DNA from: a virus | Virus record (IMG/VR): IMGVR_UViG_3300029268_000036 | Coordinates: 1 to 43,708 of that record | Direction: 5' to 3' (one strand) | DNA: 43,708 nt | Part shown: positions 10,831-33,173 of the stretch, piece by piece | How positions within the stretch are numbered: position 1 is the stretch's first letter | How the letters are laid out: every line of letters begins with the position of its first letter | Program-made: the position numbers and the translations under genes | The notes under the pieces: model-generated | The model's input: the letters and a program-made list of their open reading frames with translations, nothing else | Databases searched by the model: none | What the model was told of the DNA's origin: nothing

Positions 10831-11607
10831 TTAATACTTTGTAGTAAATATCAGGATTTGGTCTAAGACCTTTTGATGATGTGCGTCATACATTGACGAC
10901 TCCCTTTTAAGAAGCCAATCAATCGCATCTAACCGATCAGATATTTGATCCTTTACCTTCAAAATCTGTGGATAATCTTGGAGGGCAATGTCTTCAATAT
11001 TTACCGGTGAGGATATTCCTTCGAACAGCCTGTCCAAATCAGGTTTAACAACATCAATTGCTTCTATGTCTGTTCTTTTCTTCTTGACGCTTGAAAATGG
11101 AACAATGTAAACCTTGCTAGTTTTTACTTTGACATCATTTTCAAGAACATCTACTTCTCGTTCTATTTCAGTCATCCAAACCAATATGTTGTTAGATTTT
11201 CCAACATATTCTTTCAGAAAAACTGGTGGTGTCGCCCTGTCCTTCTCTGTCCAATCAATTAGTCCTGAAACATCATAGACTACTTTTAATTCCCCATTGT
11301 TGTAAAAGTAACAACTGATTGGTGGGAGATCCGGAAGACTCATACTCGTTGCATTTTTAATAATGTAGATATCCTTTTTGGATTTTGGTGATGTCGCTTT
11401 GAATAATAGCGTTTCTTCGGGATCTACATCATCACTCTTTGTTTGAATCAATTTTACATCACAAGTATTTAAATCTTCTCGGTACTTCTTTGCCCACACA
11501 TTTAGAGTTACAAAACTTATTTTTTTCGGTTCCACCTTAACCTCCTTTGTTGTTTCTTCAACAACTTCCTCTTTAAAACTTTCTATTAACTCTGCAAGAT
11601 TCTCCAT
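10831..11607 (-). CDS. hypothetical protein, first gene of its unit
   Basis: A 258-residue protein starting at the ATG 11605-11607, chosen because GGAG sits 8 bases upstream; the open frame continues 18 codons further but without a ribosome-binding site. It has an acidic, Lys-rich N-terminus (residues 9-27) and a helical C-terminal part. I do not recognise the family. It follows the promoter-like element at 11658-11680 and leads a short operon with the polymerase-like gene and the 28-residue peptide. That grouping suggests a replication-related or early role, but this is an inference. Confidence 0.75.
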   Translation of the reverse strand: MENLAELIESFKEEVVEETTKEVKVEPKKISFVTLNVWAKKYREDLNTCDVKLIQTKSDDVDPEETLLFKATSPKSKKDIYIIKNATSMSLPDLPPISCYFYNNGELKVVYDVSGLIDWTEKDRATPPVFLKEYVGKSNNILVWMTEIEREVDVLENDVKVKTSKVYIVPFSSVKKKRTDIEAIDVVKPDLDRLFEGISSPVNIEDIALQDYPQILKVKDQISDRLDAIDWLLKRESSMYDAHHQKVLDQILIFTTKY

Positions 11608-11657: not shown

Positions 11658-11680
11658 TCACAAATTAATATATATAGTAA
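11658..11680 (-). promoter_or_regulatory. promoter-like element, copy A
   Basis: On the minus strand this reads TATATATATTAATTTGTGA, and 19 bases match the element at 33151-33173 exactly. It lies in the gap before the 10831-11607 gene, about 50 bases from its start codon. A related form is at 26433-26456. The position before three separate units argues for a promoter or operator used by a phage or host RNA polymerase; which one cannot be told. Confidence 0.55.
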
Positions 11681-11681
11681 T

Positions 11682-12545
11682 TTAAAGAAATAAAAGGCCA
11701 TCGAAACCTCCCTTTATTCCCTTCCAATTTATTGCGATTGCTTCAGATGTATGAATTGATTCTTCATGAACACTTTTTGCAATCCAATCAAAAATTCTAG
11801 GATCACTATTTAATCCTTTTGAAATGAATCTAATTGCATCTTCCACAAACATCGGATTCTCTGCTGCAATTCTTGCAACTTCCTGTTCATCTTTCCTTCT
11901 CAAAAGTGGATATGTTTCATTGACGACCGCTTTTTCAACAATGTCAATTATATCTTCTAGCCACAATATTTCTGGGAGAAGAACTTCTACCAAAACAGTT
12001 GCAAATGCTCTCTGTGCATGAGGAAATCCTTTCTTACCATTTAATTCCAAATGACTACACAAAGATGCCGAGCAAACACAATATGATTGATACGGAACAA
12101 CAACTTTTTGATAAAAGTTAAATTTGTCTCCAATCAATCTTCCTTCAAATGTACATTTGTAAAATTGAGGGAATTCCAATTTAGAAATTGGTGCTTGTTT
12201 CAATATTGGATATTCAAAATCAAATCTAATAAAACTATTACTTGAATTTGTTTCAACTTCTATTCTAAATTCTCTCAAAATTTCATCAATAACATCATGA
12301 TTTAATGGTGTGTCTAGATATTTTATTAAAGTTCTCAATAATTTTGACATTGAGATTCCTTTAATATCTGATGATAGATCAGTTGACATTGAAACATTCG
12401 CCAGTATGTGATTTACACTTCCATCTTTTCCTCTTAGTAGAAATTTTGTTTTAACGTTTTCAACTCCTACTTGATAAATTGGTAATTTAACTTCAGGAAG
12501 CATTGTGTGTTGAATATCTGGTAAAGTATCTATATTATCCATCAT
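11682..12545 (-). CDS. folE2: GTP cyclohydrolase IB (FolE2)
   Basis: It converts GTP to 7,8-dihydroneopterin triphosphate, the first step to folates and to preQ0/queuosine. The protein (about 287 residues) matches bacterial FolE2 along its length. It has LPIYQVGVEN near the N-terminus, D-I-K-G-I-S-M-S (the D-x-K-G-x-x-M-S motif), L-K-Q-A-P-I-S, the catalytic-Cys region SYCVCS (around residue 153) and a late E-E-S-I-H motif. The usual CPCS and GAHNQRS appear as CVCS and a diverged F-P-H-A-Q-R. Start choice among three in-frame ATGs (12554, 12545, 12542) is uncertain; none has a good ribosome-binding site, and the gene overlaps the stop of the upstream gene, so translation is probably coupled. 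With QueD (25063-25434) it points to 7-deazaguanine synthesis. Confidence 0.85.
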   Translation of the reverse strand: MMDNIDTLPDIQHTMLPEVKLPIYQVGVENVKTKFLLRGKDGSVNHILANVSMSTDLSSDIKGISMSKLLRTLIKYLDTPLNHDVIDEILREFRIEVETNSSNSFIRFDFEYPILKQAPISKLEFPQFYKCTFEGRLIGDKFNFYQKVVVPYQSYCVCSASLCSHLELNGKKGFPHAQRAFATVLVEVLLPEILWLEDIIDIVEKAVVNETYPLLRRKDEQEVARIAAENPMFVEDAIRFISKGLNSDPRIFDWIAKSVHEESIHTSEAIAINWKGIKGGFDGLLFL

Positions 12546-12915
12546 ACCAGCCATCCGTGAGTATTTCTGCATTCTTTTTATCACCAAAAAGATTATTAAA
12601 AACTTTAGCAACTTCTTCCTTATGTTCTTTTATTGTCTTATTCTCATCACATGCATGAATATCTTTTCCAAAATATACATTATCATCGCCATATTGAGAA
12701 TATGAATTATATCCTGAAAATTCTTTATGTTTTCTTTTCAGTTCATACAATAAATTACTTACTACATCCTTATCAAGAACATAGCCAGGAAGCAACTCTT
12801 TAATTTTCTTAATAAAATGTTCATTTTCGATTATTTCATTTTCATCAAATACTCTTCCAATTATACAAAAAGAAGTGCTCGAACTATTCGTCACATTAGA
12901 AACCCTTATCTTCAT
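12535..12915 (-). CDS. hypothetical protein with N-terminal NSSSTSF motif
   Basis: A 126-residue protein beginning MKIRVSNVTNSSSTSF, a start pattern common in small phage and bacterial proteins of unknown role. The rest is helical and charged, with one internal Cys. The ribosome-binding site AAGGAG lies 7 bases before ATG. It follows the hairpin after RNA polymerase beta-1 and overlaps the start of folE2 by several bases, so the two are likely translated together. No function can be assigned. Confidence 0.7.
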   Translation of the reverse strand: MKIRVSNVTNSSSTSFCIIGRVFDENEIIENEHFIKKIKELLPGYVLDKDVVSNLLYELKRKHKEFSGYNSYSQYGDDNVYFGKDIHACDENKTIKEHKEEVAKVFNNLFGDKKNAEILTDGWYDG

Positions 12916-12933: not shown

Positions 12934-12954
12934 TGAGGGGGATTTACCCCCTCA
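12934..12954 (-). terminator. hairpin at the end of RNA polymerase beta-1
   Basis: A perfect 8-bp GC-rich stem (TGAGGGGG / CCCCCTCA) with a 5-base loop, beginning at the beta-1 stop codon. Only ATTTAAAA follows on the minus strand, so the T-run is weak; it may attenuate or stabilise the mRNA rather than fully terminate. Confidence 0.55.
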
Positions 12955-15900
12955 GATTGTTAATCCTAAAACTTTTAAATAATTTTCTAACAATTTTACA
13001 CTTTCTGGAACAGTATCCTCAACTGGTGAATCTTTAACAAATTCTGATCCAATTGCTTCTCTTATATATCTATTTTTTAAATCTATACAATCAGATTTTG
13101 TTGTTAATACTTCAGCTAAGTTCTCCATACCATCATGCCCAATAAAACACCCAGTTTCCATCTCTCCACATCTTTGTCCGCCATTATTTTTTCTACCTCC
13201 AGGTGGTTGCATTGTCTTTTTACTGTATGACCCAATTCCTCTTGCAGCTATTTTGTTTTCTGCAATATGAACCATACGGAAAAAGTACATACTCCCAACA
13301 CCAATTTTATTAACTATATCAATATCTAAAATTGGTTCATGAACTTTATATTCAAGAGGTGTGTTTGTGTATTCACAAGCCTTTAAAACATTTTCATATG
13401 TTGTAGATTCAAATGGAGGTTGTATTATACTTAAATCATTAACGAATTCTTCATCTATTGAGATAGTTTCCAGATGTTTTCCAACTTGAGATAAATACCA
13501 ATTATCTTTTGTTGAGTCAATTATTTTTATATACTCAAGAAAATACTTTTTAATTGACTTTTGGGATTTCCCCTTTTTAATTCTGTTCAATAATTCTTTC
13601 TTTAGATCTAGAACAGACATTCCAATGTGTAACTCAAATAATTGAGCAACATTCATTCTTGAAATTGTTCCTAATGGGTTTATAACAATATCTGCGTTTC
13701 TACCATCTTCAAGTCTTGGCATTTTTTCATGTGGTACTATTTTTGAAATAACTCCTTTGTTTCCATGTCGGTTTCCAATTTTATCACCAACTTCAATCTT
13801 TCTAGTATATATACCATGAATTGAAATAAATGTTCCCGAGATAACTTCATCTTTATATTTGAATTTTCCTCTTTGTGCAAACTTATCAAGACAATTATCT
13901 CTTATAAAAATACCTGCCTCTTCTTTTGGTAGAAACTTTCTGATTGTTTCCTGAATCTTTCGTTCTCTTTTGAGTTGATTTTCAAATTTCTCTTCCATCC
14001 AATCTTTAAATTGTGTTATCTCTTCATTATATCTATTCGGATAAACATCAACATTTGTAATTAGCACATCTCTTTTTGAAAGAATTGGTGTTCTGTCCTC
14101 AAAGATAACACAATAATTTAGTGGGTCATCTGGTATTTCTTTGACAATTGCATAAGGTTGCCCTTTCAATATCAATTCTCTTTTTCTTTTTCTGTAATAT
14201 ATTTCATCTTTCTTTGGTTCATCATTTTCAATGAAAAGATTTGGTGTTGGAAGTGGTTTGTATATTCCATTTTCTAAACTCAAAAGAATTTTATTTATTG
14301 GAAGAATAAAACTTAAATCAATATGGTGAACAGATGTTAAAATATCTTGTTTAACAAGTCTATCTGATACAACAATTGCGTCTTCATAATTGTACCCATA
14401 ATACGGCATCACTGCTGTAAGAAGATTTTTTCCAATACAAATTCTTCCATTTTTAAGAAAACTGCTTTCAGCAACAATATCACCTTTTTTAACAACATCC
14501 CCTATTTCAACCATAACATTCATTACATTTATATTTTCTTCTGTTGTTTCATACGTTTCAACATTAAATACATCATATGTGTTATCATCATAAACAACTA
14601 TTATAAACATTGGGTCAACATAAACAACTTTACCATCTTTTTTTGCTCTGTGTAAAAATGTTGTGTGATTAGTGTACAATCCTTCACACCCAGATTGAAC
14701 TAGTGGTAGATCAGGGTCTGAAAGGCATATTGCTTGTCTCATTTGTGATGCAGCCATTTGAAGTCTTGTTGGGTCATCATGTTCAACCGATGGAACCATT
14801 GAAACTGCAACTGAAATAGGTGTTTTGTCTAAACGTTCATCAGTAAATCTTTTATTTTCATCCAATTTTTCGTTTGGTAAAATGTGTTGCAAAACACCAC
14901 AATTTTCTCGATCAGAAGTATCAACAGGACAAATTCTTCCAAACATACTTGGATTTATGTCCCTTAAATAAACAGGAATATTTTCTTTAGAAAATCCTCC
15001 AGGCCCAACCAATGAACATCTTGTCAATCTAGATAATTGATTAATAGGATTTATTGAGAAATCATATTCAACAATATTTGAAATTGTACAGTCTGACAAT
15101 ATTGCTGAGGAATTAATATTAAATTTAACTTTCTTTGACCCATATGCAGTAATACATAAGTCAAATATAGCTTTGGCTACTCTTCCATAGATCATATATT
15201 CTATACATCTTAATCTTTTATTTTTAACATCTGTGTCATCAATTGACACATCAATTTGAATCATCTTCAGAATCTCAGAAAGAATATCATCGCTTTCGAA
15301 AAATTTTGCAGTTGGTTTATCAATTTTCAATGCAATATCAAGAGCATAAAGAACAACCTCACCTTTTTTCTGTGTGTCTGAAACATTGTAATAAAGACCT
15401 ACTTCATTTTCCATTTCTTTTGCTGATAGTGTTGAATACATTTCATCAAAGAAAACAAAGTCCGCCATGAGTTTTTCATATTTACTTTTTGGTTCTTCAA
15501 TGATATTGTTCTTAAAATTTAATGTATTGCATATATATTCATAACCATATTTTGCAAATAACAAAGCTGCAATTGGAACTTCAGCCCCTAGAAGAGAAAG
15601 ACACATATAAGGTGCAGTTTTCTTTTCAACAATCATTAAAACTAAAACATTAGTTCTTATTTTGATGTTTTCTCCTCTAGTAACAATAGGAGTATCGAAC
15701 AATTGAAACATTGGAACTTTTTTATTTCCTTTTATAACTATAAAATTATCATCAATAAGTTTTGGAATCATCATACTAAAATCAATTTCACTTTCACCTC
15801 TTTTCAGTTTAATAATTAAATTATTTTTCAATGTTCGATCTAGTTCATGCGAAAAAGAATCTTTTATCTCAAAGTCTGTAAGTTCAAAGCCAGCTTCCTC

Positions 15901-16020
15901 AGCTGGCTTCAAAATTTCCCTTACTGTTGGAAGAATTTCATCATATTCAGACTTTCTAATATTAAAAATATTATTTTCTTCATCAATCTTGAAGTTTGGA
16001 TTAATTATATCTAATTGCAT
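12952..16020 (-). CDS. rpoB-like: RNA polymerase beta subunit, pair 1
   Basis: A 1022-residue single-chain beta subunit. It carries the catalytic-core motif GDKIGNRHGNKGVISKI (about residues 735-755), followed by NPLGTISRMNVAQLFE, and near residue 948 GGQRCGEMETGC, all close to bacterial beta. The N-terminal domain is short: the beta motif P-K-L-I-D-D-N-F-I-V-I-K-G comes at about residue 90. The start is the ATG at 16018-16020, chosen because AGGAGG lies just upstream; the frame is open for 41 more codons into the preceding gene, but without a binding site. It lies 8 bases after beta-prime-1, so both subunits come from one operon. No alpha or sigma gene is visible nearby. Unlike phiKZ-type polymerases, the subunit is not split. 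Confidence 0.93.
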   Translation of the reverse strand: MQLDIINPNFKIDEENNIFNIRKSEYDEILPTVREILKPAEEAGFELTDFEIKDSFSHELDRTLKNNLIIKLKRGESEIDFSMMIPKLIDDNFIVIKGNKKVPMFQLFDTPIVTRGENIKIRTNVLVLMIVEKKTAPYMCLSLLGAEVPIAALLFAKYGYEYICNTLNFKNNIIEEPKSKYEKLMADFVFFDEMYSTLSAKEMENEVGLYYNVSDTQKKGEVVLYALDIALKIDKPTAKFFESDDILSEILKMIQIDVSIDDTDVKNKRLRCIEYMIYGRVAKAIFDLCITAYGSKKVKFNINSSAILSDCTISNIVEYDFSINPINQLSRLTRCSLVGPGGFSKENIPVYLRDINPSMFGRICPVDTSDRENCGVLQHILPNEKLDENKRFTDERLDKTPISVAVSMVPSVEHDDPTRLQMAASQMRQAICLSDPDLPLVQSGCEGLYTNHTTFLHRAKKDGKVVYVDPMFIIVVYDDNTYDVFNVETYETTEENINVMNVMVEIGDVVKKGDIVAESSFLKNGRICIGKNLLTAVMPYYGYNYEDAIVVSDRLVKQDILTSVHHIDLSFILPINKILLSLENGIYKPLPTPNLFIENDEPKKDEIYYRKRKRELILKGQPYAIVKEIPDDPLNYCVIFEDRTPILSKRDVLITNVDVYPNRYNEEITQFKDWMEEKFENQLKRERKIQETIRKFLPKEEAGIFIRDNCLDKFAQRGKFKYKDEVISGTFISIHGIYTRKIEVGDKIGNRHGNKGVISKIVPHEKMPRLEDGRNADIVINPLGTISRMNVAQLFELHIGMSVLDLKKELLNRIKKGKSQKSIKKYFLEYIKIIDSTKDNWYLSQVGKHLETISIDEEFVNDLSIIQPPFESTTYENVLKACEYTNTPLEYKVHEPILDIDIVNKIGVGSMYFFRMVHIAENKIAARGIGSYSKKTMQPPGGRKNNGGQRCGEMETGCFIGHDGMENLAEVLTTKSDCIDLKNRYIREAIGSEFVKDSPVEDTVPESVKLLENYLKVLGLTI

Positions 16021-16028
16021 AAGACCTC

Positions 16029-18755
16029 CTAAATTTTTCTTCCTAACAGAATCGTATCCAAAATACCAGAATAAAATCCACTTTGTAGAACACCTCGTAA
16101 AATGTTCTTTTTTGGATTTGAAAAAGCTAATCCTAAGACCCAACTTTCTTTTTCTGGAACTGTAAGAACACTATATAACATTGGTTGAACTTTATCTCTA
16201 TTTGAATATAATCTCCACTTTCTAGCACCATACCACATTAATTGGGCAACAATAACTTCAAAATGAACATGATGAACAAATCTTGATGATGCATAAACTT
16301 TGTAGAGATTATTTACTAAATCAACATGAGACATATTTTTATCACGGATGTGAAGAAGGGCGGATGCTGTCGATAGATCACCAATTATATCCATCTGTCT
16401 TAAGTTATGAACATCCGATTGATGTCCTTTTGCTTGGGCTACACCAGAAGTGTGGAAAGTTCTTAAAACTAGCTGTGTTCCAATTTCTCCTAAAGCTTGC
16501 GCTGCTAAAATTCCAACATATCTACTATTACAGACTCTCCACAAATCACCATAACATTTATTACAAATTTTTTCGCTCAAACAATAAATTGGTGATCTAA
16601 CTTTTATATGTCTCCCAACAATATCTTTACACACTTCTTTTGTAATCATTTCTTCTTTTTCAGTATCAGGATTAAACCACCATCTTAACAATAATGTTTG
16701 AGCCTTTTTTAAATTCTCAACATAAACAGGTAGATATTCCTTACACCCACAATCATCAAGATCTGCATCTTTTTGTAAATTTGCACATGTAAAAATAAGT
16801 TTTCTTGAAAGATACCCTGATGCTCCTGTATTTATTGCAACATCCAATAATCCTTTTCTACATCCATATGCAGATAAGAAAAATTCTTCATGAGACAATC
16901 CTTCAATAAGACTACTTTTTATTGGTGTTGTTATAATTGCACCTTCAAAATTTGCAATATATCCTCTAGAAAGAATTATTTGTCTAGCCTGATCCCAGCT
17001 TCCTCTTGCACCAGAATCTATTAAGTATGAATATTTAAATTCTTTTCTCAAAATAGCTTCTGTCTCTTTACTAGAAATGGCATCAACTTGATCTTTCATT
17101 GTTTCTTTTGAATATATATTATCTCTTTCTTTTCTAACTTCTGATGATATAATATTTTCTAATGAAAGAGAACAACCAAAAATTGTTGAATATTTAAATC
17201 CTTCATCTTTTATTGAATCTAAAACTTTGATGGTTACAGTTTTATCAAATTTTTCTGTTACATCATTAAGAATTTCTAATAACTCATTTTTTCTAATGAC
17301 CATATTTACTAGAGGATATTCCTGAGGTAAACAATCATTGAATATTTTCATTCCTCTCGTTACTTCAACCCCTTTACACATAACTTTGATGTTTAAGTCT
17401 GGGATCATTTCATTTGTAAGAAAATAAATACCCAAAATAATATCTTGACTAGGAATTTGTGTTAATGTTCGGTTTGTTGCATTAAATAAATTTACAGAGG
17501 GTAAAAATTTCTCATGAACCTCTTTTTGAGATTCTTTTGATAGTGGTAGATAAACTGCCATCTGATCTCCATCAAAATCAGCATTAAATCCAAAACATGA
17601 TAGTGGATGTATTTTTATTGTATTTCCTAGTCCAACTTTAATTTTAAATCCCATTAAACTCAATCTGTGCAATGAAGGTTGTCTGTTTAATAAACATGTC
17701 TCATCCTCAACAATTTCTTCACAGAGTGGTAACAATGAAGGATCTGACATTTCAGAACACTGATCCACATATTCAATTGCATTATTCATAAATTTGAATC
17801 GTTCATGTTCAATTAATTTTTTTGCAATTTGAAGTTTAAATAACTCCAAAACCATTGGGTATGGTAAGCAACATTCATCAAAATTCAATAATGGATCCGG
17901 TGTTATTACAGCTCTTCCAGAAAAATCAATTCTTTTTCCAAGTATGTGTTTTCTTATCAATCCTTCCTTTTTTGAAATTTTTGATAAAATATATTCATAT
18001 ATTGAAAAAATTTCTCTCTGAACTAATTTAAAATAAAAATAAAATAATCTTTTATCCCTTTGAATATCAAATAATGTACTTCTCATTTCTTCTGTTTTTG
18101 TCAAAATTGTTACATATGAACGATTAAACGGATCTGTAATTGATGGTTGATCTGATTTTGTTGATTTTGATGTAGGTCTAAGATCGGGAGGAAGTACAAT
18201 TACATCTTGTATCAAAAGTTTATCAATATTGTCTTTTACAAATTTCCACGATGGGGCATCTTGGAGGTCTTCAGCCATTTGTGTGACGATTTTAAGAATT
18301 GCTTCATCTTTTTCGTATTTCTTAAAAATTGATGAAGAATATTTTTCACTATGGTCGTCACTTACATAATAGGCGTTTGTTTGTGTATTTACATATAATG
18401 CAGATTTATCGCTTTTCAATAATGTATCAATATGTCTTTTTAATTCTTTTCCCCCCAACCAGACAATCAAATCATAAAAAATTGGATTTATAACTTTAAA
18501 AGGAAGATGAATTCTTGCAAATCTTCTTCTTCTTTCAATACTTTTTGCTACATCCACACCACACAATTTACATTTATCAACACCAGATGATGATCCATAA
18601 TACGTTCCGCATTGACAAGTATAGTTTTTTACAGGCCCAAAAATTTGTTCAGAAAGAATTCCTTCTGAATGGAACTTTCTACGAGTTATTACATTTTTTG
18701 ATTTAACTTCAGGTAAATCTTTGCAAAATTCAGTGATGTCTAATAATACTGGCAT
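16029..18755 (-). CDS. rpoC-like: RNA polymerase beta-prime subunit, pair 1
   Basis: A 908-residue beta-prime subunit holding the catalytic NADFDGDQMA motif (about residues 388-397), whose three Asp bind the active-site magnesium. The N-terminal zinc ribbon is intact (C47, C49, C62, C65, in EQIFGPVKNYTCQCG). Other motifs are L-G-K-R-I-D-F-S-G-R-A-V, LLNRQPSLHRL, GARGSWDQARQ, the second zinc site (CGC...CNKCYG) and the trigger-loop region GEIGTQLVLRTFHTSG. All are close to bacterial RpoC, but the protein is about 500 residues shorter than E. coli's, lacking most lineage inserts. AAGGAGG precedes the ATG. It leads the pair-1 operon, and two small genes lie upstream. Confidence 0.95.
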   Translation of the reverse strand: MPVLLDITEFCKDLPEVKSKNVITRRKFHSEGILSEQIFGPVKNYTCQCGTYYGSSSGVDKCKLCGVDVAKSIERRRRFARIHLPFKVINPIFYDLIVWLGGKELKRHIDTLLKSDKSALYVNTQTNAYYVSDDHSEKYSSSIFKKYEKDEAILKIVTQMAEDLQDAPSWKFVKDNIDKLLIQDVIVLPPDLRPTSKSTKSDQPSITDPFNRSYVTILTKTEEMRSTLFDIQRDKRLFYFYFKLVQREIFSIYEYILSKISKKEGLIRKHILGKRIDFSGRAVITPDPLLNFDECCLPYPMVLELFKLQIAKKLIEHERFKFMNNAIEYVDQCSEMSDPSLLPLCEEIVEDETCLLNRQPSLHRLSLMGFKIKVGLGNTIKIHPLSCFGFNADFDGDQMAVYLPLSKESQKEVHEKFLPSVNLFNATNRTLTQIPSQDIILGIYFLTNEMIPDLNIKVMCKGVEVTRGMKIFNDCLPQEYPLVNMVIRKNELLEILNDVTEKFDKTVTIKVLDSIKDEGFKYSTIFGCSLSLENIISSEVRKERDNIYSKETMKDQVDAISSKETEAILRKEFKYSYLIDSGARGSWDQARQIILSRGYIANFEGAIITTPIKSSLIEGLSHEEFFLSAYGCRKGLLDVAINTGASGYLSRKLIFTCANLQKDADLDDCGCKEYLPVYVENLKKAQTLLLRWWFNPDTEKEEMITKEVCKDIVGRHIKVRSPIYCLSEKICNKCYGDLWRVCNSRYVGILAAQALGEIGTQLVLRTFHTSGVAQAKGHQSDVHNLRQMDIIGDLSTASALLHIRDKNMSHVDLVNNLYKVYASSRFVHHVHFEVIVAQLMWYGARKWRLYSNRDKVQPMLYSVLTVPEKESWVLGLAFSNPKKNILRGVLQSGFYSGILDTILLGRKI

Positions 18756-20009: not shown

Positions 20010-23000
20010 TTATAACTTATAAATTTCATCAGCTTCAATTTGATCGATATGTCTATGTGAAATTATATTGATGCTTTGATTTCCAACCATTTTTCTCAAC
20101 ATATCACTAACATAACTAATGTTACGCTCATCAAGAGTATCAAAAATTTCATCCAATAAAATAATATTCATAGACATATTTTGTATATAACTTTGTAAAT
20201 CTCTTAATGTGAAAATTGTAGCTATATCAACTACCCTTGTTTGCCCACCAGATAATTGTTTTCTCATATTTGCTTTTGTAACTGTATCTAAAACGTTAAC
20301 TGATATCTTATCTCTTATATTTCCTCCTTTTGTTTGAGATAACGTATCAAATGAAACTTGATATCTTTCACCGATTTGTTTCAAATAATATGAAATTCTT
20401 TGATTCATAAATGGAATTGCTTCATCAATTAACATTGACGGAATTCCCGACATTGAAAATCCTATTTTCCAAAATTCATAAACTGTAGTTGACTCTTTTA
20501 GTCCATTCTTTTCTTCTTCTAAAACAGAAAATTTTCCATTCAACTTTTCCAGTTTATCAATCATGTCGCTAACTAAAGTATCGTCAAATTCTCTTGTCAT
20601 TGTTTCTTCAAGTTTTCCAGCTAATAAAGAAATTTGAGAAATAAAATTATTCAAATCTTTTTCTTTTTCTTCTTTTTCTTCTTTCTTTGTTTCTACTTCT
20701 TCTATGTCTACCTGCAGTTTCTCTATCTTTAATTTATATATATCCTCATCAGCCGAATACCTGGAAATTATTTCTTTTGTTTTGGCTTCAAGAATTGAAT
20801 CAACTTTATCCAATGCATTTTCAATCTTCAAATCAATTGATTCAATCTCAGCATCTTTTTCTTCTGTTATCAACTTTTTCTTTTTTAAATAATTTTCTTC
20901 TTTTTCAATTTGTTTCTTTTGTGCTTTTTTATACAATATATTATTATCTGTATGACTATCATTTAGCGCCAATAATTCCTCATTTTTAGAAGAAAGTTTT
21001 TCAAGTGTTTCTTCAAGAATTTTTTCAATATTCTTTCGATGCTCTTCACCAACAACTTGTTTACAAGCAAAACATATTACAACTTCTTTTGATAAATCTT
21101 CTTTTAGAGATTCTGATGAATGAATTAAGTTCAAAATATCAGTGCTAATAGCTGTAGTTTTATTATTGAGGTCAGTTAAAATAGCTTCGTATTTTGAACA
21201 TTCCGAAGAAAGTAATTCAACATTTTTAACTCTTTCTTGCAAAAGATTATTTAAAAGATTCATTTTTTCAGACACTATAGATGTTTTTTTGTCTCCTAAA
21301 GTTTTTTCAATTTCACTTTTCTTTAATAGGCATCTATTTGTAAATTCTGTAATTTCTGTGTTTTTATCTTTTACAATTTGATTTTTCTTCGATGTTACAG
21401 CATTCTTCTCTTTTTCTAACTCAACAATATCTTTATCAATTGTTGATGAATATTTTTTTAACTCCTTCTCTAGTTCAGCTTTTTTAATCTTTAAATCTGA
21501 AATAGCTACATTGATTGCTTCAGCATCTTCTTTTTTCTTCTTGTTAAATATTCTTTTCTTTAATTCTAAATCTTCAAGTTTTTCTGTGTATTCAGAAATA
21601 ATTTCTGTTTTTGCTGAAATTTCATTCTCAATACTAGTTAGTCTTGATTGTATATTTTTTAATGTTTCACTAGTAAATGAATAATAATCATCATATTTAT
21701 CAAGTTGTAATACTTTTCTAAAGATATCTTTTTGTTCAGAATCAGTTAGATCGGTAAAGAATGTTGTAACTTTTTGACCATACAACAAAAGGTTTCCAAA
21801 TAGTTTTTGAGGAATAAAAATGGTTTCAATTTCAGGAACAACTTCTCGATGTCCTTTTTTGATGAGTTCATCGTCTTTATATAAATAGACATTGTTTCCA
21901 TGTTTTGTATGATTAGTGTATCTATCAACCCTATACTTTGATCCATTTGTTTCAAATTCAACATAAGTATGACAATTTTTTCCGACTTTATTATTTACAA
22001 CATCTTCACCTTTTAATCCTTCAGGAGTTGTGCCATAAAAAGTATATGGAATACATCCAAAAATTGTTGATTTTCCTTTTCCATTTTCCCCTGTTACTAA
22101 TGAAATTTTTCCATTTTCAAATTGATATGACATTTCATCAAAATAACATTTGTAGTTTTCCATTCCAACTTTTATAAAGTTAATATCGAGTTTGGATGTA
22201 TATGTTTTTGTGACATGTGTTCCAACTGCATTATTTAAAATCCACAAACCTACTCTTAAATATTCGTCTAAAGATGATTCCTGGATTTCAGAGATCTCGA
22301 GATATTTTTTTAATTTTTCCTCTTCAGACATTGATGAATCTATACCTCTATTGGTAATATCTTTTTCTGTTTTATCAATTATGATAAAACTTTCATTAAT
22401 GTCTGAAACAATAACATTATCTTGTTTGCATAACTTAATTTCATTTCCTTCTTTTTTAAGCTTTTCAGCAAGTTTCAAAACTTCTTTTTTATTTTCTTTT
22501 GTTAAATCAAACTGATAAAACTTTTTATACCCTGTTGTAGGAATACTTTCAACATTATCTGTTTCTGTATCAAGAATTATAAATCTTTTTTCATCTTCTC
22601 TTTCGCCCCAATCTTCTTGAATTGGTGACCCAACATAAGTTACATTTCCAACTGTTTGAGGTTTGTGGTAATGTGATAAGAAACAATGTTTATATTTAGA
22701 AACATCTTTAAGACCAATGTCTGAAACAATTGAAATCCCACTATTTAATGCCCCTTCATTTAGTCCTAGATGCCCAATAAGAAAGTCTGCTCCTTTTGGG
22801 GGATTCTTAATTTCTTCATTCATCTTTTCTGGATGCCAGGGAACAAAATAAAGATTGTTAACTAATGTTGCTTCATGAAACATTTTAACATTTGGTTCAT
22901 TATCTAAACATTTCAATGCAGTAACACCATTTCCAGACCTGCTAGACATATCATGATTACCAGAAATAATATAGAAAGTTATATTTGTGTTGTTTCGAAT

Positions 23001-23219
23001 GAAATCAAGGAAAAAACTTTGTGCTAGTACATGAAGTATTGACTTATTGTGAAAAACATCACCCCCTATGATAATATTAGGGATATTGTTTTTTGATGCA
23101 AATTCAACCATATTTTTAAGAGCATTTCCAGTATAAAATAATTTTTCTGGTAATCCTTCTATCATATTTTCTGAATTTGTGGCAGAAAGATGTAGATCAC
23201 CAGTGATTATATATTTCAT
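20010..23219 (-). CDS. 46/47: fused Mre11-Rad50 recombination nuclease (gp47-gp46 type)
   Basis: One 1069-residue chain holds both halves of the SbcCD/gp46-gp47 complex, which resects DNA ends for recombination-dependent replication. Residues 1-220 are the Mre11-type phosphoesterase: GDLHLS (7-12), GGDVFH (52-57), SGNHD (86-90), GHLG, H-Y-H-K and GSP. Residues about 345 onward are the Rad50-type ATPase: Walker A TGENGKGKST (376-385), a long Lys/Glu coiled coil with a zinc-hook CFAC (near 715), signature LSGGQ (near 988), Walker B ILLDE (near 1019) and a C-terminal I-S-H-R. AAGGAG lies 6 bases before ATG. It overlaps no neighbour and follows the UvsW-like helicase directly. In T4 the two halves are separate genes; no frameshift or internal stop is needed here. 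Confidence 0.93.
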   Translation of the reverse strand: MKYIITGDLHLSATNSENMIEGLPEKLFYTGNALKNMVEFASKNNIPNIIIGGDVFHNKSILHVLAQSFFLDFIRNNTNITFYIISGNHDMSSRSGNGVTALKCLDNEPNVKMFHEATLVNNLYFVPWHPEKMNEEIKNPPKGADFLIGHLGLNEGALNSGISIVSDIGLKDVSKYKHCFLSHYHKPQTVGNVTYVGSPIQEDWGEREDEKRFIILDTETDNVESIPTTGYKKFYQFDLTKENKKEVLKLAEKLKKEGNEIKLCKQDNVIVSDINESFIIIDKTEKDITNRGIDSSMSEEEKLKKYLEISEIQESSLDEYLRVGLWILNNAVGTHVTKTYTSKLDINFIKVGMENYKCYFDEMSYQFENGKISLVTGENGKGKSTIFGCIPYTFYGTTPEGLKGEDVVNNKVGKNCHTYVEFETNGSKYRVDRYTNHTKHGNNVYLYKDDELIKKGHREVVPEIETIFIPQKLFGNLLLYGQKVTTFFTDLTDSEQKDIFRKVLQLDKYDDYYSFTSETLKNIQSRLTSIENEISAKTEIISEYTEKLEDLELKKRIFNKKKKEDAEAINVAISDLKIKKAELEKELKKYSSTIDKDIVELEKEKNAVTSKKNQIVKDKNTEITEFTNRCLLKKSEIEKTLGDKKTSIVSEKMNLLNNLLQERVKNVELLSSECSKYEAILTDLNNKTTAISTDILNLIHSSESLKEDLSKEVVICFACKQVVGEEHRKNIEKILEETLEKLSSKNEELLALNDSHTDNNILYKKAQKKQIEKEENYLKKKKLITEEKDAEIESIDLKIENALDKVDSILEAKTKEIISRYSADEDIYKLKIEKLQVDIEEVETKKEEKEEKEKDLNNFISQISLLAGKLEETMTREFDDTLVSDMIDKLEKLNGKFSVLEEEKNGLKESTTVYEFWKIGFSMSGIPSMLIDEAIPFMNQRISYYLKQIGERYQVSFDTLSQTKGGNIRDKISVNVLDTVTKANMRKQLSGGQTRVVDIATIFTLRDLQSYIQNMSMNIILLDEIFDTLDERNISYVSDMLRKMVGNQSINIISHRHIDQIEADEIYKL

Positions 23220-25434: not shown

Positions 25435-25472
25435 CTACATCTCCTTTATAATGTTTATTATGTTTCAAAAAT

Positions 25473-25503
25473 AAAAAATCCCGATTTTTACATCGGGATT
25501 TCA
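25473..25503 (-). terminator. intrinsic terminator
   Basis: A 10-bp stem (AAATCCCGAT / ATCGGGATTT) with a 6-base loop and a TTTTTTAT run following on the minus strand. It lies 10 bases after the outer-membrane-protein stop codon and ends that unit. Confidence 0.88.
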
Positions 25504-25512
25504 ATTTAATTT

Positions 25513-26310
25513 TTAGAATCTGTATCCAATAAATGTTTTAACCATCCCACCACTTGAATTGAATGTTGTGTCATTTTCTTTTATCCAATATCCTTCTGAT
25601 GTAGGATCTGAAAAATTAACAAGACACACAGAACCAGTATATCCGACTTCAATACCAAATTCTATTTTTCTAAACAGAAAAATATTTCTTGCTCCTATTT
25701 CATACATGGCAGAGTAACCACTTGTTCCATCATATTTTCCAATATAAGGGAAGTCAAAAGAGGCCGAAGCAATACCAACACCACCTCTTCCTCCTAACTC
25801 CAAGGTATACCAAGGAGTAAATTGGAAAGAATACCCAGCACCAAATATAAAATTGAATGCAGAAACACTAACATCTGTGTCTGAAGTTGAAAATCCTTCA
25901 TCCTCAAAAGTTATATCATCAAATTTATATGTAAAGACCCCAAATCCCATATCCCAGTATAACCCATTTTGTTCCTTAGACTCTTTGAAGGTAAAAAGCA
26001 AATCATAATTTCTACCTTCAGAATTATCTACTGTGTATTTTTCATCCCCTCCTCCTGTATAATCTACTTTGAATTTATTTATGTTTCCGTAGACAGGAGC
26101 ATAACCAAATCTTACTGCTCCATAACTATAATTTGTTTGTGGATAGGTAACAGCCAGTGGTTGAACTGGTGTTTGTGCCGCAGGTGGTAGGGGTTGATCT
26201 GGAATCTGAGGCGAATCAATCGTTGTTGATGTTCCATTTTCTTCTGCAAAAGCAACCTGTGAAAAACAAAACAATAAAACTGACAAAACCAATAGTGTAA
26301 CTTTCCTCAT
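25513..26310 (-). CDS. outer-membrane beta-barrel protein with signal peptide
   Basis: A 265-residue secreted protein. The signal peptide is clear: M-R-K, a hydrophobic core (VTLLVLSVLLFCFSQ) and A-F-A before Glu23. A Pro-rich linker follows (residues about 36-54), then alternating aromatic/polar strands typical of small beta-barrels, ending in Phe (G-Y-R-F), the usual C-terminal signal for Bam-dependent outer-membrane insertion. The start 26308-26310 is preferred because GAGGAG lies 6 bases before it; an ATG two codons upstream sits too close to that site. It has its own promoter-like element and terminator, so it looks like a separately expressed gene. Possible roles are masking a receptor to block superinfection, or another change to the host surface. 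Confidence 0.8.
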   Translation of the reverse strand: MRKVTLLVLSVLLFCFSQVAFAEENGTSTTIDSPQIPDQPLPPAAQTPVQPLAVTYPQTNYSYGAVRFGYAPVYGNINKFKVDYTGGGDEKYTVDNSEGRNYDLLFTFKESKEQNGLYWDMGFGVFTYKFDDITFEDEGFSTSDTDVSVSAFNFIFGAGYSFQFTPWYTLELGGRGGVGIASASFDFPYIGKYDGTSGYSAMYEIGARNIFLFRKIEFGIEVGYTGSVCLVNFSDPTSEGYWIKENDTTFNSSGGMVKTFIGYRF

Positions 26311-26432
26311 AAACATCTCCTCTTTGATTTTTTATTTTTTTGTTACAATTAAAAAAAATTTTGTCTAAAACATTAATGAAAGAGGGCATACTTCAAAAAT
26401 ATTCATATTGAACATATGCCCAAATATCACCT

Positions 26433-26456
26433 TTCATTAATTTATATATATAACTA
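26433..26456 (-). promoter_or_regulatory. promoter-like element, copy C
   Basis: On the minus strand this reads TTAGTTATATATATAAATTAATGAAAG, related to the elements at 11658-11680 and 33151-33173. It lies just after the gp52-like stop and about 120 bases before the outer-membrane-protein start. The rest of the 143-base gap shows no gene. It is less similar than the other two copies, so confidence is lower. Confidence 0.45.
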
Positions 26457-30805: not shown

Positions 30806-32062
30806 TTACCTCCCTTTGGTTTTTTCTTTTTGTGCCCTTTCTGAAATTTCCTTCATAACTTGATAAAATCTTTCTTTAAATTCTGGATTTGACATTAGAG
30901 AGGTTTGAATATTTGCAAGGTGCATGTAACCATCAAAATCTTCATTCTTTATTTCGTATTGTGTTGTAATGTACATTACACCAATATCTAATGGAAGTGA
31001 AAGAATGAAATCTTTAAGATTTGTAATCTCACCATTTGTTACTTTAGGTTTTTCTGATGATAAATATCTAAGAAGAGATGTCATCAATTGTCCTAACTTA
31101 ATATTGTTTGCCTCATCAATAAATTTTTTAATTTTTGGTTTGACTAATTGATAGTTCTTAAATATTTCTTCAGGTTTAACTTCGCATTCATGATTCTTTA
31201 CAAAATCTATAAAAACTCTGGATATAGAAGTATTTATCAGTCCTGATATAGTTTCTTCAATTAGTGTTAAACATTTTTCGATATTATCTCCAAACTCATA
31301 CCCCCATAATATATCAGAAACTCTTTCCCACGAAGCAGGATTTGCGTAAACTCTTCCTAGCTTTTGTGCTTCAAAATCATATAACATTCCTGGATTTGTT
31401 TCAACAAATGAAACAACCAATGAATGAAAGCCATGATCTTTTGCATAATTCAAAAATGCTTTTGTGCTAAGTTCACAATAAAGTTTACAGCTTCTTCTCA
31501 TTCCCGCCGCGTCTTCAACATAATTCATTGAGTATTGTTCATCGTCTGGATTATCTAAACATATTACAAACCATCCTTTTGGAAATTTATATGTATGAAT
31601 TTTATTTTCATCCATAGCATCCCAAAGTAATTGTTGTAGGTTGTAATCACCGCGAGAGAATTCATCAATTACGAAAATTCCATATTCTTGATTTTGTTTT
31701 GGTACAAAGTCTGAGTAAAGCATTTTAAACGTTGCTTCTTGCGGTACTGGATAAGGACAAAGAATATCGTCCCTTGATTTTGTTGGTGATTTTATCATAG
31801 ATAAATTAAAATTTTTTCCTGTCTCTTCAGTTATTTCATTACATATTTGACTGCATATTCTTGTTTTTCCAAGACCTGCGGGGCCAATTAAATGAAATGT
31901 TTGAGGTTTAACTTCTTTTCCTTTTTCCCAACATACTAAAACATTTTTTATTGATTTTTTAATTACTTCTTTTGCTCTATCAATTGAAACTGTTGATATA
32001 GCTAATCTGTCGCCATGAGATATTCTCGTTGGCATTGAACTGTTTCGATTAACATTACTCAT
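30806..32062 (-). CDS. MoxR-type AAA+ ATPase
   Basis: A 418-residue AAA+ ATPase with Walker A GPAGLGKTR (60-68), Walker B F-V-I-D-E-F-S-R (near 130), sensor-1-like L-D-N-P, and an arginine pair in AAGMRRS. The D-E-F-S-R box and overall order resemble the MoxR/RavA group. GAGGAGG lies 6 bases before ATG. It stands directly before the VWA-metallopeptidase gene, and MoxR-VWA pairs act as chaperone or metal-insertion modules in bacteria. It follows the hairpin after the ssDNA-binding-protein gene. A role in remodelling a phage or host complex is likely, but the target is not shown. Confidence 0.82.
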   Translation of the reverse strand: MSNVNRNSSMPTRISHGDRLAISTVSIDRAKEVIKKSIKNVLVCWEKGKEVKPQTFHLIGPAGLGKTRICSQICNEITEETGKNFNLSMIKSPTKSRDDILCPYPVPQEATFKMLYSDFVPKQNQEYGIFVIDEFSRGDYNLQQLLWDAMDENKIHTYKFPKGWFVICLDNPDDEQYSMNYVEDAAGMRRSCKLYCELSTKAFLNYAKDHGFHSLVVSFVETNPGMLYDFEAQKLGRVYANPASWERVSDILWGYEFGDNIEKCLTLIEETISGLINTSISRVFIDFVKNHECEVKPEEIFKNYQLVKPKIKKFIDEANNIKLGQLMTSLLRYLSSEKPKVTNGEITNLKDFILSLPLDIGVMYITTQYEIKNEDFDGYMHLANIQTSLMSNPEFKERFYQVMKEISERAQKEKTKGR

Positions 32063-32091: not shown

Positions 32092-32115
32092 GGGAGGGAT
32101 ATAAATATCCCTCCC
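32092..32115. other. perfect GC-rich hairpin between genes
   Basis: A 10-bp perfect stem (GGGAGGGATA / TATCCCTCCC) with a 4-base loop, 12 bases after the stop of the ssDNA-binding-protein gene. The minus strand has no T-run after it, so it does not look like a standard intrinsic terminator for this strand. It may protect the 3' end of an mRNA or mark a processing site. Confidence 0.6.
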
Positions 32116-32126
32116 TTTAACTTTCA

Positions 32127-33083
32127 CTAAAATGCTATATCGTTTAGATTAAATGCATCATCAAATGATTCATCTTTTGGTGATGTTTTTGTTTCTGATT
32201 TCTGTTCTGTTGCTGGGGGAATTTCCCCGAATGATTCAGCTTTAGACTGTCTCTGTTCAGATTTACCTTCATCATTATCAAAATAATCAGCTTCTGGCTG
32301 ATCTTTATATCCGATAATTCTATCAAGTTTTTCAGCAACACCAGCTTTAATACTTTTTGCAATTTCAGCAAGTTTAATTAACTGGGTCTTTGGAATTGCA
32401 GAACCTTTTTCAAAAGAAAAAACTGTATGCATATTAAACTGTGATTTCTTCTTTGCTGTCTTTATTATTGTAACAATTCTTTTTGTATTATCAAAATTCT
32501 CCTTTTCCCACTTTTCTGATTCTGGTGTAACTGGTTCAAAAACTGGATCAATTTCTTCTGAAGCAACTTCAACTAGATATGTGTTTGTTGGGTCCCAAGA
32601 CATTCCTTTTGTTACAACAAAAGCATATTCAGGTTTTCCATCAGGACCTACCCAAATCTTTCCGTTTCTGTTTTCACAAAGAATCCCAAATAAAATAATC
32701 CATTGTCTACACTCTGCACAAAAATGCCCAGGTACTTTTTCTTTTGATGTTACACATTTTCTTCCAGAAGATCCCATCCAAGGATTTGTGTCTTTTCTTG
32801 ATGAGCACAAAATATCCCATGATCTTTTTGCTTTATCAAAGACACGATTAACATTTGGTTTAATCACATGTGTTATAATAAGAAAAACTTCGTTCTTATT
32901 ATAATCAACCCCTCTAATTTGCAGCTTGTCAACCAGTTCAGTTATATCTTTGTGGTTTTGTCTTTCTTCACCACAAATATATATACTGTGAAATGGTTCT
33001 TCCTCTGGTGCCAACTGTTTTTTGATTCCAACACCAGTCCCAGTTAATTCCAAAAACTCTTCGTAGCTTCTACCTTTTGCCAT
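32127..33083 (-). CDS. probable single-stranded DNA-binding protein (gp32-like role)
   Basis: A 318-residue protein with the plan of phage ssDNA-binding proteins: a basic N-terminus, a beta-rich centre holding a cysteine cluster (C...C...HFCAEC, about residues 90-125), then a long acidic Ser/Glu/Asp tail ending D-D-A-F-N-L-N-D-I-A-F. Acidic C-terminal tails of this kind recruit replication proteins in SSB and gp32. AAGGAG lies 7 bases before ATG. It has its own promoter-like element (33151-33173) and a 3' hairpin, fitting a highly made protein; T4 gene 32 is similarly set apart. Direct sequence similarity to gp32 could not be confirmed by eye, so this is a moderate call. Confidence 0.55.
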   Translation of the reverse strand: MAKGRSYEEFLELTGTGVGIKKQLAPEEEPFHSIYICGEERQNHKDITELVDKLQIRGVDYNKNEVFLIITHVIKPNVNRVFDKAKRSWDILCSSRKDTNPWMGSSGRKCVTSKEKVPGHFCAECRQWIILFGILCENRNGKIWVGPDGKPEYAFVVTKGMSWDPTNTYLVEVASEEIDPVFEPVTPESEKWEKENFDNTKRIVTIIKTAKKKSQFNMHTVFSFEKGSAIPKTQLIKLAEIAKSIKAGVAEKLDRIIGYKDQPEADYFDNDEGKSEQRQSKAESFGEIPPATEQKSETKTSPKDESFDDAFNLNDIAF

Positions 33084-33150: not shown

Positions 33151-33173
33151 TCACAAATTAATATATATAACTT
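33151..33173 (-). promoter_or_regulatory. promoter-like element, copy B
   Basis: Nineteen bases (TATATATATTAATTTGTGA on the minus strand) match the element at 11658-11680 exactly. It overlaps the stop of the 33172-33429 gene and lies about 70 bases before the ssDNA-binding-protein start. Confidence 0.55.

What the first reader, a model, noticed from the sequence alone, without database searches (positions are those of the whole stretch)
25470..26456. Phage-encoded outer-membrane beta-barrel in its own transcription unit
A signal peptide with an A-F-A cleavage site, a Pro-rich linker, barrel-like strands and a terminal Phe make a convincing outer-membrane protein. It has its own promoter-like element and a strong terminator, unlike its neighbours. 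It could block receptor use by competing phages or alter host permeability, and it points to a Gram-negative host.
Basis: partly seen in the sequence, partly recalled or inferred. Interest (0 to 1): 0.75.

Follow-up and report, generated by a model that had tools for sequence, protein, structure and literature searches.

The report
Phage gene for outer-membrane beta-barrel
A very large, uncultured tailed phage carries, inside its DNA-replication gene cluster, a stand-alone gene for a small barrel-shaped protein that should insert into its host's outer membrane, probably to alter the surface of the infected cell; some distant relatives carry different barrels in other places.

Summary
A minus-strand gene (25513-26310, or 26316 from the first ATG) encodes a secreted protein with a signal peptide (…AFA|EE), a Pro-rich segment, about eight alternating strands and a C-terminal Tyr-Arg-Phe. 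The strand score beats 1000/1000 shuffles and all 22 negative controls, and resembles OmpW. AlphaFold failed without homologues (pLDDT 36 and 31), so the fold is inferred.

The gene stands alone. It has a strong terminator. Its upstream motif occurs at two other window sites and recurs among relatives: 30 exact copies against 0.02 for permuted motifs. This is a candidate promoter of this phage group, which resembles the described multimeric-RNA-polymerase Caudovirales.

In most of 15 related contigs the TopB-TopA-QueD-UvsW-SbcD-SbcC order is kept and none has this gene. Three other contigs carry unrelated outer-membrane-barrel candidates elsewhere. No homologue was found in Pfam, PHROGs, NCBIfam, PDB sequences, 50,697 phage records, or (close relatives only) viral and genome contigs.

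Most likely it is late-acquired phage cargo that remodels the host outer membrane during infection. Superinfection exclusion is the favoured role but untested. PagL-type lipid A deacylase is unlikely: the protein has no histidine.

The parts
25513..26316 (-). Coding sequence of the outer-membrane protein, 267 aa from the first ATG; the more likely start is the second ATG, 26310 (265 aa)
   Evidence: ribosome-binding site AAAGAGGAG at 26317-26325 favours the second ATG
26245..26310 (-). Signal peptide MRKVTLLVLSVLLFCFSQVAFA, cleavage after A-F-A
   Evidence: sequence; simple n/h/c-region and -3/-1 rule scoring
26137..26244 (-). Mature N-terminal segment, Pro-rich (about residues 34-58), presumably periplasmic
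   Evidence: sequence
25516..26136 (-). Predicted beta-barrel, about 8 strands with longer loops on one side and short turns on the other
   Evidence: amphipathic-strand analysis against shuffles and controls; AlphaFold uninformative
25516..25542 (-). C-terminal strand VKTFIGYRF with terminal Phe and Tyr at position -3, as in BAM-recognised outer-membrane proteins
   Evidence: sequence; general knowledge of outer-membrane protein C-terminal signals
26434..26452 (-). Candidate phage promoter motif TATATATATAAATTAATGA
   Evidence: three matches without mismatch to TATATATATWAATTNRTGA in the window (also 11658-11676 and 33151-33169, minus); clade-wide motif
26372..26441 (-). Hairpin-forming inverted repeat in the 5' leader (overlaps the 3' end of the motif); role unknown, possibly mRNA stability or regulation
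   Evidence: (-24.2 kcal/mol, z -3.8)
25475..25502 (-). Intrinsic terminator after the gene
11658..11676 (-). Second copy of the promoter motif, upstream of the ORF starting at 11607
33151..33169 (-). Third copy of the promoter motif, upstream of the ORF starting at 33083

Best explanation
The gene is phage cargo inserted between topoisomerase subunit A and QueD in a conserved replication cluster. It is transcribed as a single gene from a promoter of a kind used across this phage group, and ended by its own terminator (promoter and terminator inferred from sequence). The product is exported by Sec, trimmed after A-F-A, and inserted by the BAM machinery as a small, probably eight-stranded, barrel with long surface loops and a periplasmic Pro-rich N-terminal segment (inferred from sequence). 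While the phage takes over the cell, the barrel changes the host surface; the most likely benefit is to reduce adsorption of further phages, by masking or displacing a receptor (inferred, untested).
For: Signal peptide, strand pattern and C-terminal signal. Own motif, long leader and terminator; the motif is clade-wide (30 exact copies against a mean of 0.017 for permuted motifs) and most copies within 2 mismatches are intergenic (77 of 105). Conserved neighbours and no such gene in 15 relatives point to late acquisition. Three other members carry different secreted barrel candidates: Phenol_MetA_deg (E 4.9e-6), Porin_5 (E 9.9e-5, just under cut-off), OMP_b-brl (E 2.9e-8), which suggests repeated selection for outer-membrane cargo. 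Phages that alter outer-membrane receptors to exclude others are established (T5 Llp on FhuA, PMC9586334; Cor of phi80 and N15, PMC11436027).
Against: No homologue and no confident structure, so the barrel fold is not shown. Nothing links the protein to any receptor. The receptor blocker with a solved mechanism cited here (Llp) is a small lipoprotein, not a barrel. Host unknown. The three other candidates are not homologous to this one, and two of them score weakly in my strand test (z 1.5 and 2.0).
Confidence: 0.42

Rival explanations
1. Outer-membrane barrel that changes permeability or nutrient uptake of the infected cell (an auxiliary metabolic role) rather than phage exclusion.
For: Two of the other clade barrels resemble transport-type families, Phenol_MetA_deg and Porin_5. 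A viral porin OmpL next to an ammonium transporter has been reported in marine phage contigs (PMC8115048).
Against: The predicted barrel has only about 8 strands, a size usually too narrow for an open diffusion pore (general knowledge); no transport gene is next to it.
Confidence: 0.25
2. Outer-membrane enzyme or adhesin, for example a PagL-like lipid A deacylase that changes LPS and so phage binding.
For: PagL is the only Pfam match, very weak (E 0.17, 12.5 bits against a cut-off of 23).
Against: The mature protein contains no histidine, whereas PagL catalysis uses a His-Ser pair (general knowledge); the match is at chance level.
Confidence: 0.08
3. A secreted or virion-associated beta-rich protein that is not an integral outer-membrane barrel, for instance a periplasmic or surface beta-sandwich.
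For: No confident model; the best PDB sequence match, insignificant, is a fimbrial lectin (E 0.22).
Against: Signal peptide plus terminal Phe/Tyr pattern plus eight amphipathic strands at OmpW-like significance.
Confidence: 0.15

Closest known systems
Small 8-stranded outer-membrane proteins (OmpX, OmpW, OmpA barrel; Pfam OMP_b-brl PF13505)
   Same: Signal peptide, about 8 amphipathic strands, C-terminal aromatic residue; strand score near OmpW
   Different: No PF13505 match; N-terminal Pro-rich extension; encoded by a phage
Phage-encoded outer-membrane proteins: lambda Lom and the PA-2 porin (from memory); viral OmpL of marine phage contigs (PMC8115048)
   Same: Outer-membrane barrels carried by phages as extra genes
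   Different: No similar protein in 50,697 phage records; here in a large phage with its own multisubunit RNA polymerases, under a phage-type motif, as a single-gene unit
Superinfection-exclusion proteins acting on outer-membrane receptors (T5 Llp, PMC9586334; Cor, PMC11436027)
   Same: Phage protein proposed to act at the host outer membrane during infection
   Different: Llp is a small periplasmic lipoprotein, not a barrel; function here untested
Multimeric-RNAP-encoding Caudovirales, mReC (Weinheimer and Aylward 2020, PMC7481178)
   Same: Unsplit beta and beta-prime genes; relatives encode gp23-type capsid protein
   Different: That paper's text does not mention outer-membrane proteins, porins or promoters

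Membership tests
Outer-membrane beta-barrel protein | Sec signal peptide | tested here: met
   (simple rule-based scoring)
Outer-membrane beta-barrel protein | Alternating amphipathic strands covering the mature protein | tested here: met
   z 3.06, 0 of 1000 shuffles; negatives at most z 1.5
Outer-membrane beta-barrel protein | C-terminal aromatic residue in a final strand | tested here: met
   VKTFIGYRF at the C-terminus
Outer-membrane beta-barrel protein | Closed barrel fold | tested here: inconclusive
   AlphaFold without homologues, pLDDT 36 and 31
OMP_b-brl (PF13505) | Score over the curated cut-off | tested here: not met
PagL lipid A deacylase (PF09411) | Score over the curated cut-off | tested here: not met
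   12.5 bits against 23
PagL lipid A deacylase (PF09411) | Catalytic histidine | tested here: not met
   no His in the mature protein
Superinfection-exclusion protein | Blocks adsorption or infection by other phages | not testable with these tools
   needs an experiment
mReC phages | Encodes beta and beta-prime RNA polymerase subunits that branch apart from cellular ones | tested here: inconclusive
   two beta/beta-prime pairs present; no tree was built
mReC phages | gp23-type major capsid protein (PF07068) | tested here: inconclusive
   absent from the window fragment, present in relatives G011 and G017

The most novel reading that the evidence does not exclude
This group of large phages repeatedly acquires unrelated outer-membrane barrels as interchangeable surface cargo, placed downstream of the phages' own promoter motif, so that the infected cell is given a new outer surface.
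Probability: 0.25. Interest if true: 0.7.

Novelty: new variant of a known kind. Interest (0 to 1): 0.5.

Why it matters
Phage-encoded outer-membrane proteins are known mainly from temperate phages (from memory). A barrel gene in a large phage with its own RNA polymerases, under a candidate promoter of that group, would show that such phages also rebuild the host surface during infection. The clade-wide motif is useful on its own: it gives a testable promoter for phages whose promoters are not described in the paper that defined the lineage.

Tried and rejected
Homologue searches: Pfam, PHROGs, NCBIfam, PDB sequences, tblastn of 50,697 phage records, two pattern scans of viral contigs, one of genome contigs, 40 related or RNAP-bearing records, and a filter-free phmmer of all fetched ORFs: nothing significant. 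Structure: two AlphaFold jobs, both far below confidence, so no fold search was run. Host by QueD: best matches in mixed phyla, mostly Bacteroidota, identity 30-55%, so no host is claimed. Sigma-70 promoter: not above chance. PagL enzyme: rejected for lack of histidine. The pairwise motif similarity alone was not significant (306 of 2000 shuffles); the promoter claim rests on the clade-wide count. Rfam: no match.

Full report
What was claimed.

The gene. The ORF is on the minus strand, 25513-26316, 267 aa. The likely start is the second ATG at 26310, because the ribosome-binding site AAAGAGGAG touches the first ATG. The protein begins with a basic n-region, a hydrophobic core and A-F-A followed by Glu-Glu. 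It then has a Pro-rich stretch and ends GMVKTFIGYRF. Among ORFs of 90 aa or more in the window it was the only one to pass a signal-peptide filter that excluded other membrane spans.

Is it a barrel? I scored alternating amphipathic strands with a scale of my own, set by general facts about barrel strands. The mature protein has 8 such strands and z = 3.06 against 1000 shuffles (none as high). On the same test OmpW gives 3.3, OmpX 4.2 and the OmpA barrel 5.3. The highest of 22 negative controls (E. coli and phage proteins) is 1.5. AlphaFold, run without homologues on the whole protein and on the barrel region, gave pLDDT 36 and 31. So the fold is supported by sequence only.

Family. No significant match in Pfam, NCBIfam, PHROGs, PDB sequences or 50,697 phage records. 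Pattern scans of viral and genome contigs, which find close relatives only, gave none. The weak PagL match (E 0.17) fails both its cut-off and the catalytic histidine: the mature protein has no His.

The phage. The window encodes two pairs of unsplit beta and beta-prime RNA polymerase subunits, a T4-type baseplate protein, topoisomerase II subunits, a helicase with ResIII/DEAD domains, and a protein with SbcC-type and phosphoesterase domains. Related contigs were found through beta-prime (the closest at 40-52% identity). Two of them encode a gp23-type capsid protein. This resembles the mReC lineage of Weinheimer and Aylward (PMC7481178), but I built no tree.

Placement. Of the 15 related contigs with topoisomerase subunit A, most keep the order TopB-TopA-QueD-UvsW-SbcD-SbcC with various small genes between; QueD was not matched in G011 (part of the output was cut). 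None holds a match to this protein. I infer a late insertion in this phage.

Transcription unit. The gene has 143 nt before it and 78 nt after it; the median gap in the window is 9 nt. The terminator at 25475-25502 folds at -15.5 kcal/mol, z -4.0. A leader hairpin at 26372-26441 folds at -24.2 kcal/mol, z -3.8. Sigma-70 sites are no more frequent than chance.

A candidate promoter of the group. The upstream region shares a motif with two other upstream regions of the window. The pairwise similarity alone could arise by chance in such AT-rich DNA (306 of 2000 shuffles). But TATATATATWAATTNRTGA, written from those three sites, has exactly three matches without mismatch in the window, all on the coding strand and upstream of ORFs. 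In the window plus fetched related contigs the form TATATATATTAATNNNTGA occurs 30 times exactly, against a mean of 0.017 and maximum of 1 for 60 letter-permuted motifs. The window's copy before this gene differs from that stricter form by one base. Allowing two mismatches gives 105 sites, 77 of them between genes, with a median of 117 nt to the next same-strand ATG; permuted motifs at two mismatches gave 21-42, so part of the 105 is noise. RNAP-encoding jumbo phages are known to have AT-rich conserved early promoters centred near -10 (PMC7598289). I infer, without transcript data, that this is a promoter.

Other barrels in the group. Screening the relatives' DNA for signal peptides gave 26 further candidates, many of them spurious. 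Three look like outer-membrane barrels by Pfam: P0001 in G003 (Phenol_MetA_deg, E 4.9e-6, over cut-off), P0002 in G011 (Porin_5, E 9.9e-5, just under cut-off), P0003 in G016 (OMP_b-brl, E 2.9e-8, over cut-off). Their strand z-scores are 1.5, 2.0 and 3.9. P0001 and P0003 have no tblastn match in the phage records; P0002 was not searched there. P0002 lies about 370 nt downstream of an exact motif and P0001 about 1 kb downstream of a one-mismatch motif, each with other small genes between. They sit in different places from the window gene. This hints at repeated acquisition, but the numbers are small and the contigs are fragments.

Function. I favour surface remodelling that lowers adsorption of other phages, at 0.42. 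Permeability or uptake is the main rival. Nothing here tests function.

Noticed in passing
window 11658-11676, 26434-26452, 33151-33169 (minus) and exact copies in related loci: Clade-wide motif TATATATATTAATNNNTGA, a candidate promoter of this phage group.
   Followed up: partly
window 20010-23219: SbcD-like and SbcC-like domains lie in one 1069-aa ORF; the relatives whose output was seen have two separate ORFs.
   Followed up: no
L116:15004-15075: A tRNA with anticodon CTA (called tRNA-Pyl by ARAGORN) directly upstream of the P0001 barrel gene; a possible amber suppressor.
   Followed up: no
L175:10256-10271 and 10887-10902: A perfect 16-nt inverted repeat TCTCTAGACGCAGAGA flanks the P0003 barrel gene.
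   Followed up: partly
window 12535-12915; L098, L099, L100, L102, L111: Many small ORFs share an N-terminal motif like FVTNSSSTSF.
   Followed up: no
L132:8759-9214: A phage ORF with a signal peptide and a weak match to outer-membrane cytochrome domains, ending in CTACHRRI (a CxxCH motif).
   Followed up: no
L168:16555-16929: A 124-aa ORF with a signal peptide and a high strand score (z 3.6) but no C-terminal aromatic residue; a possible further secreted beta protein.
   Followed up: no
window 32092-32115: Strong palindrome GGGAGGGATATAAATATCCCTCCC in the gap before the ORF 30806-32062.
   Followed up: no
window 12952-16143 and 16029-18755: The beta and beta-prime ORFs of the second RNA polymerase overlap by 115 nt as called from the first start codon.
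   Followed up: no
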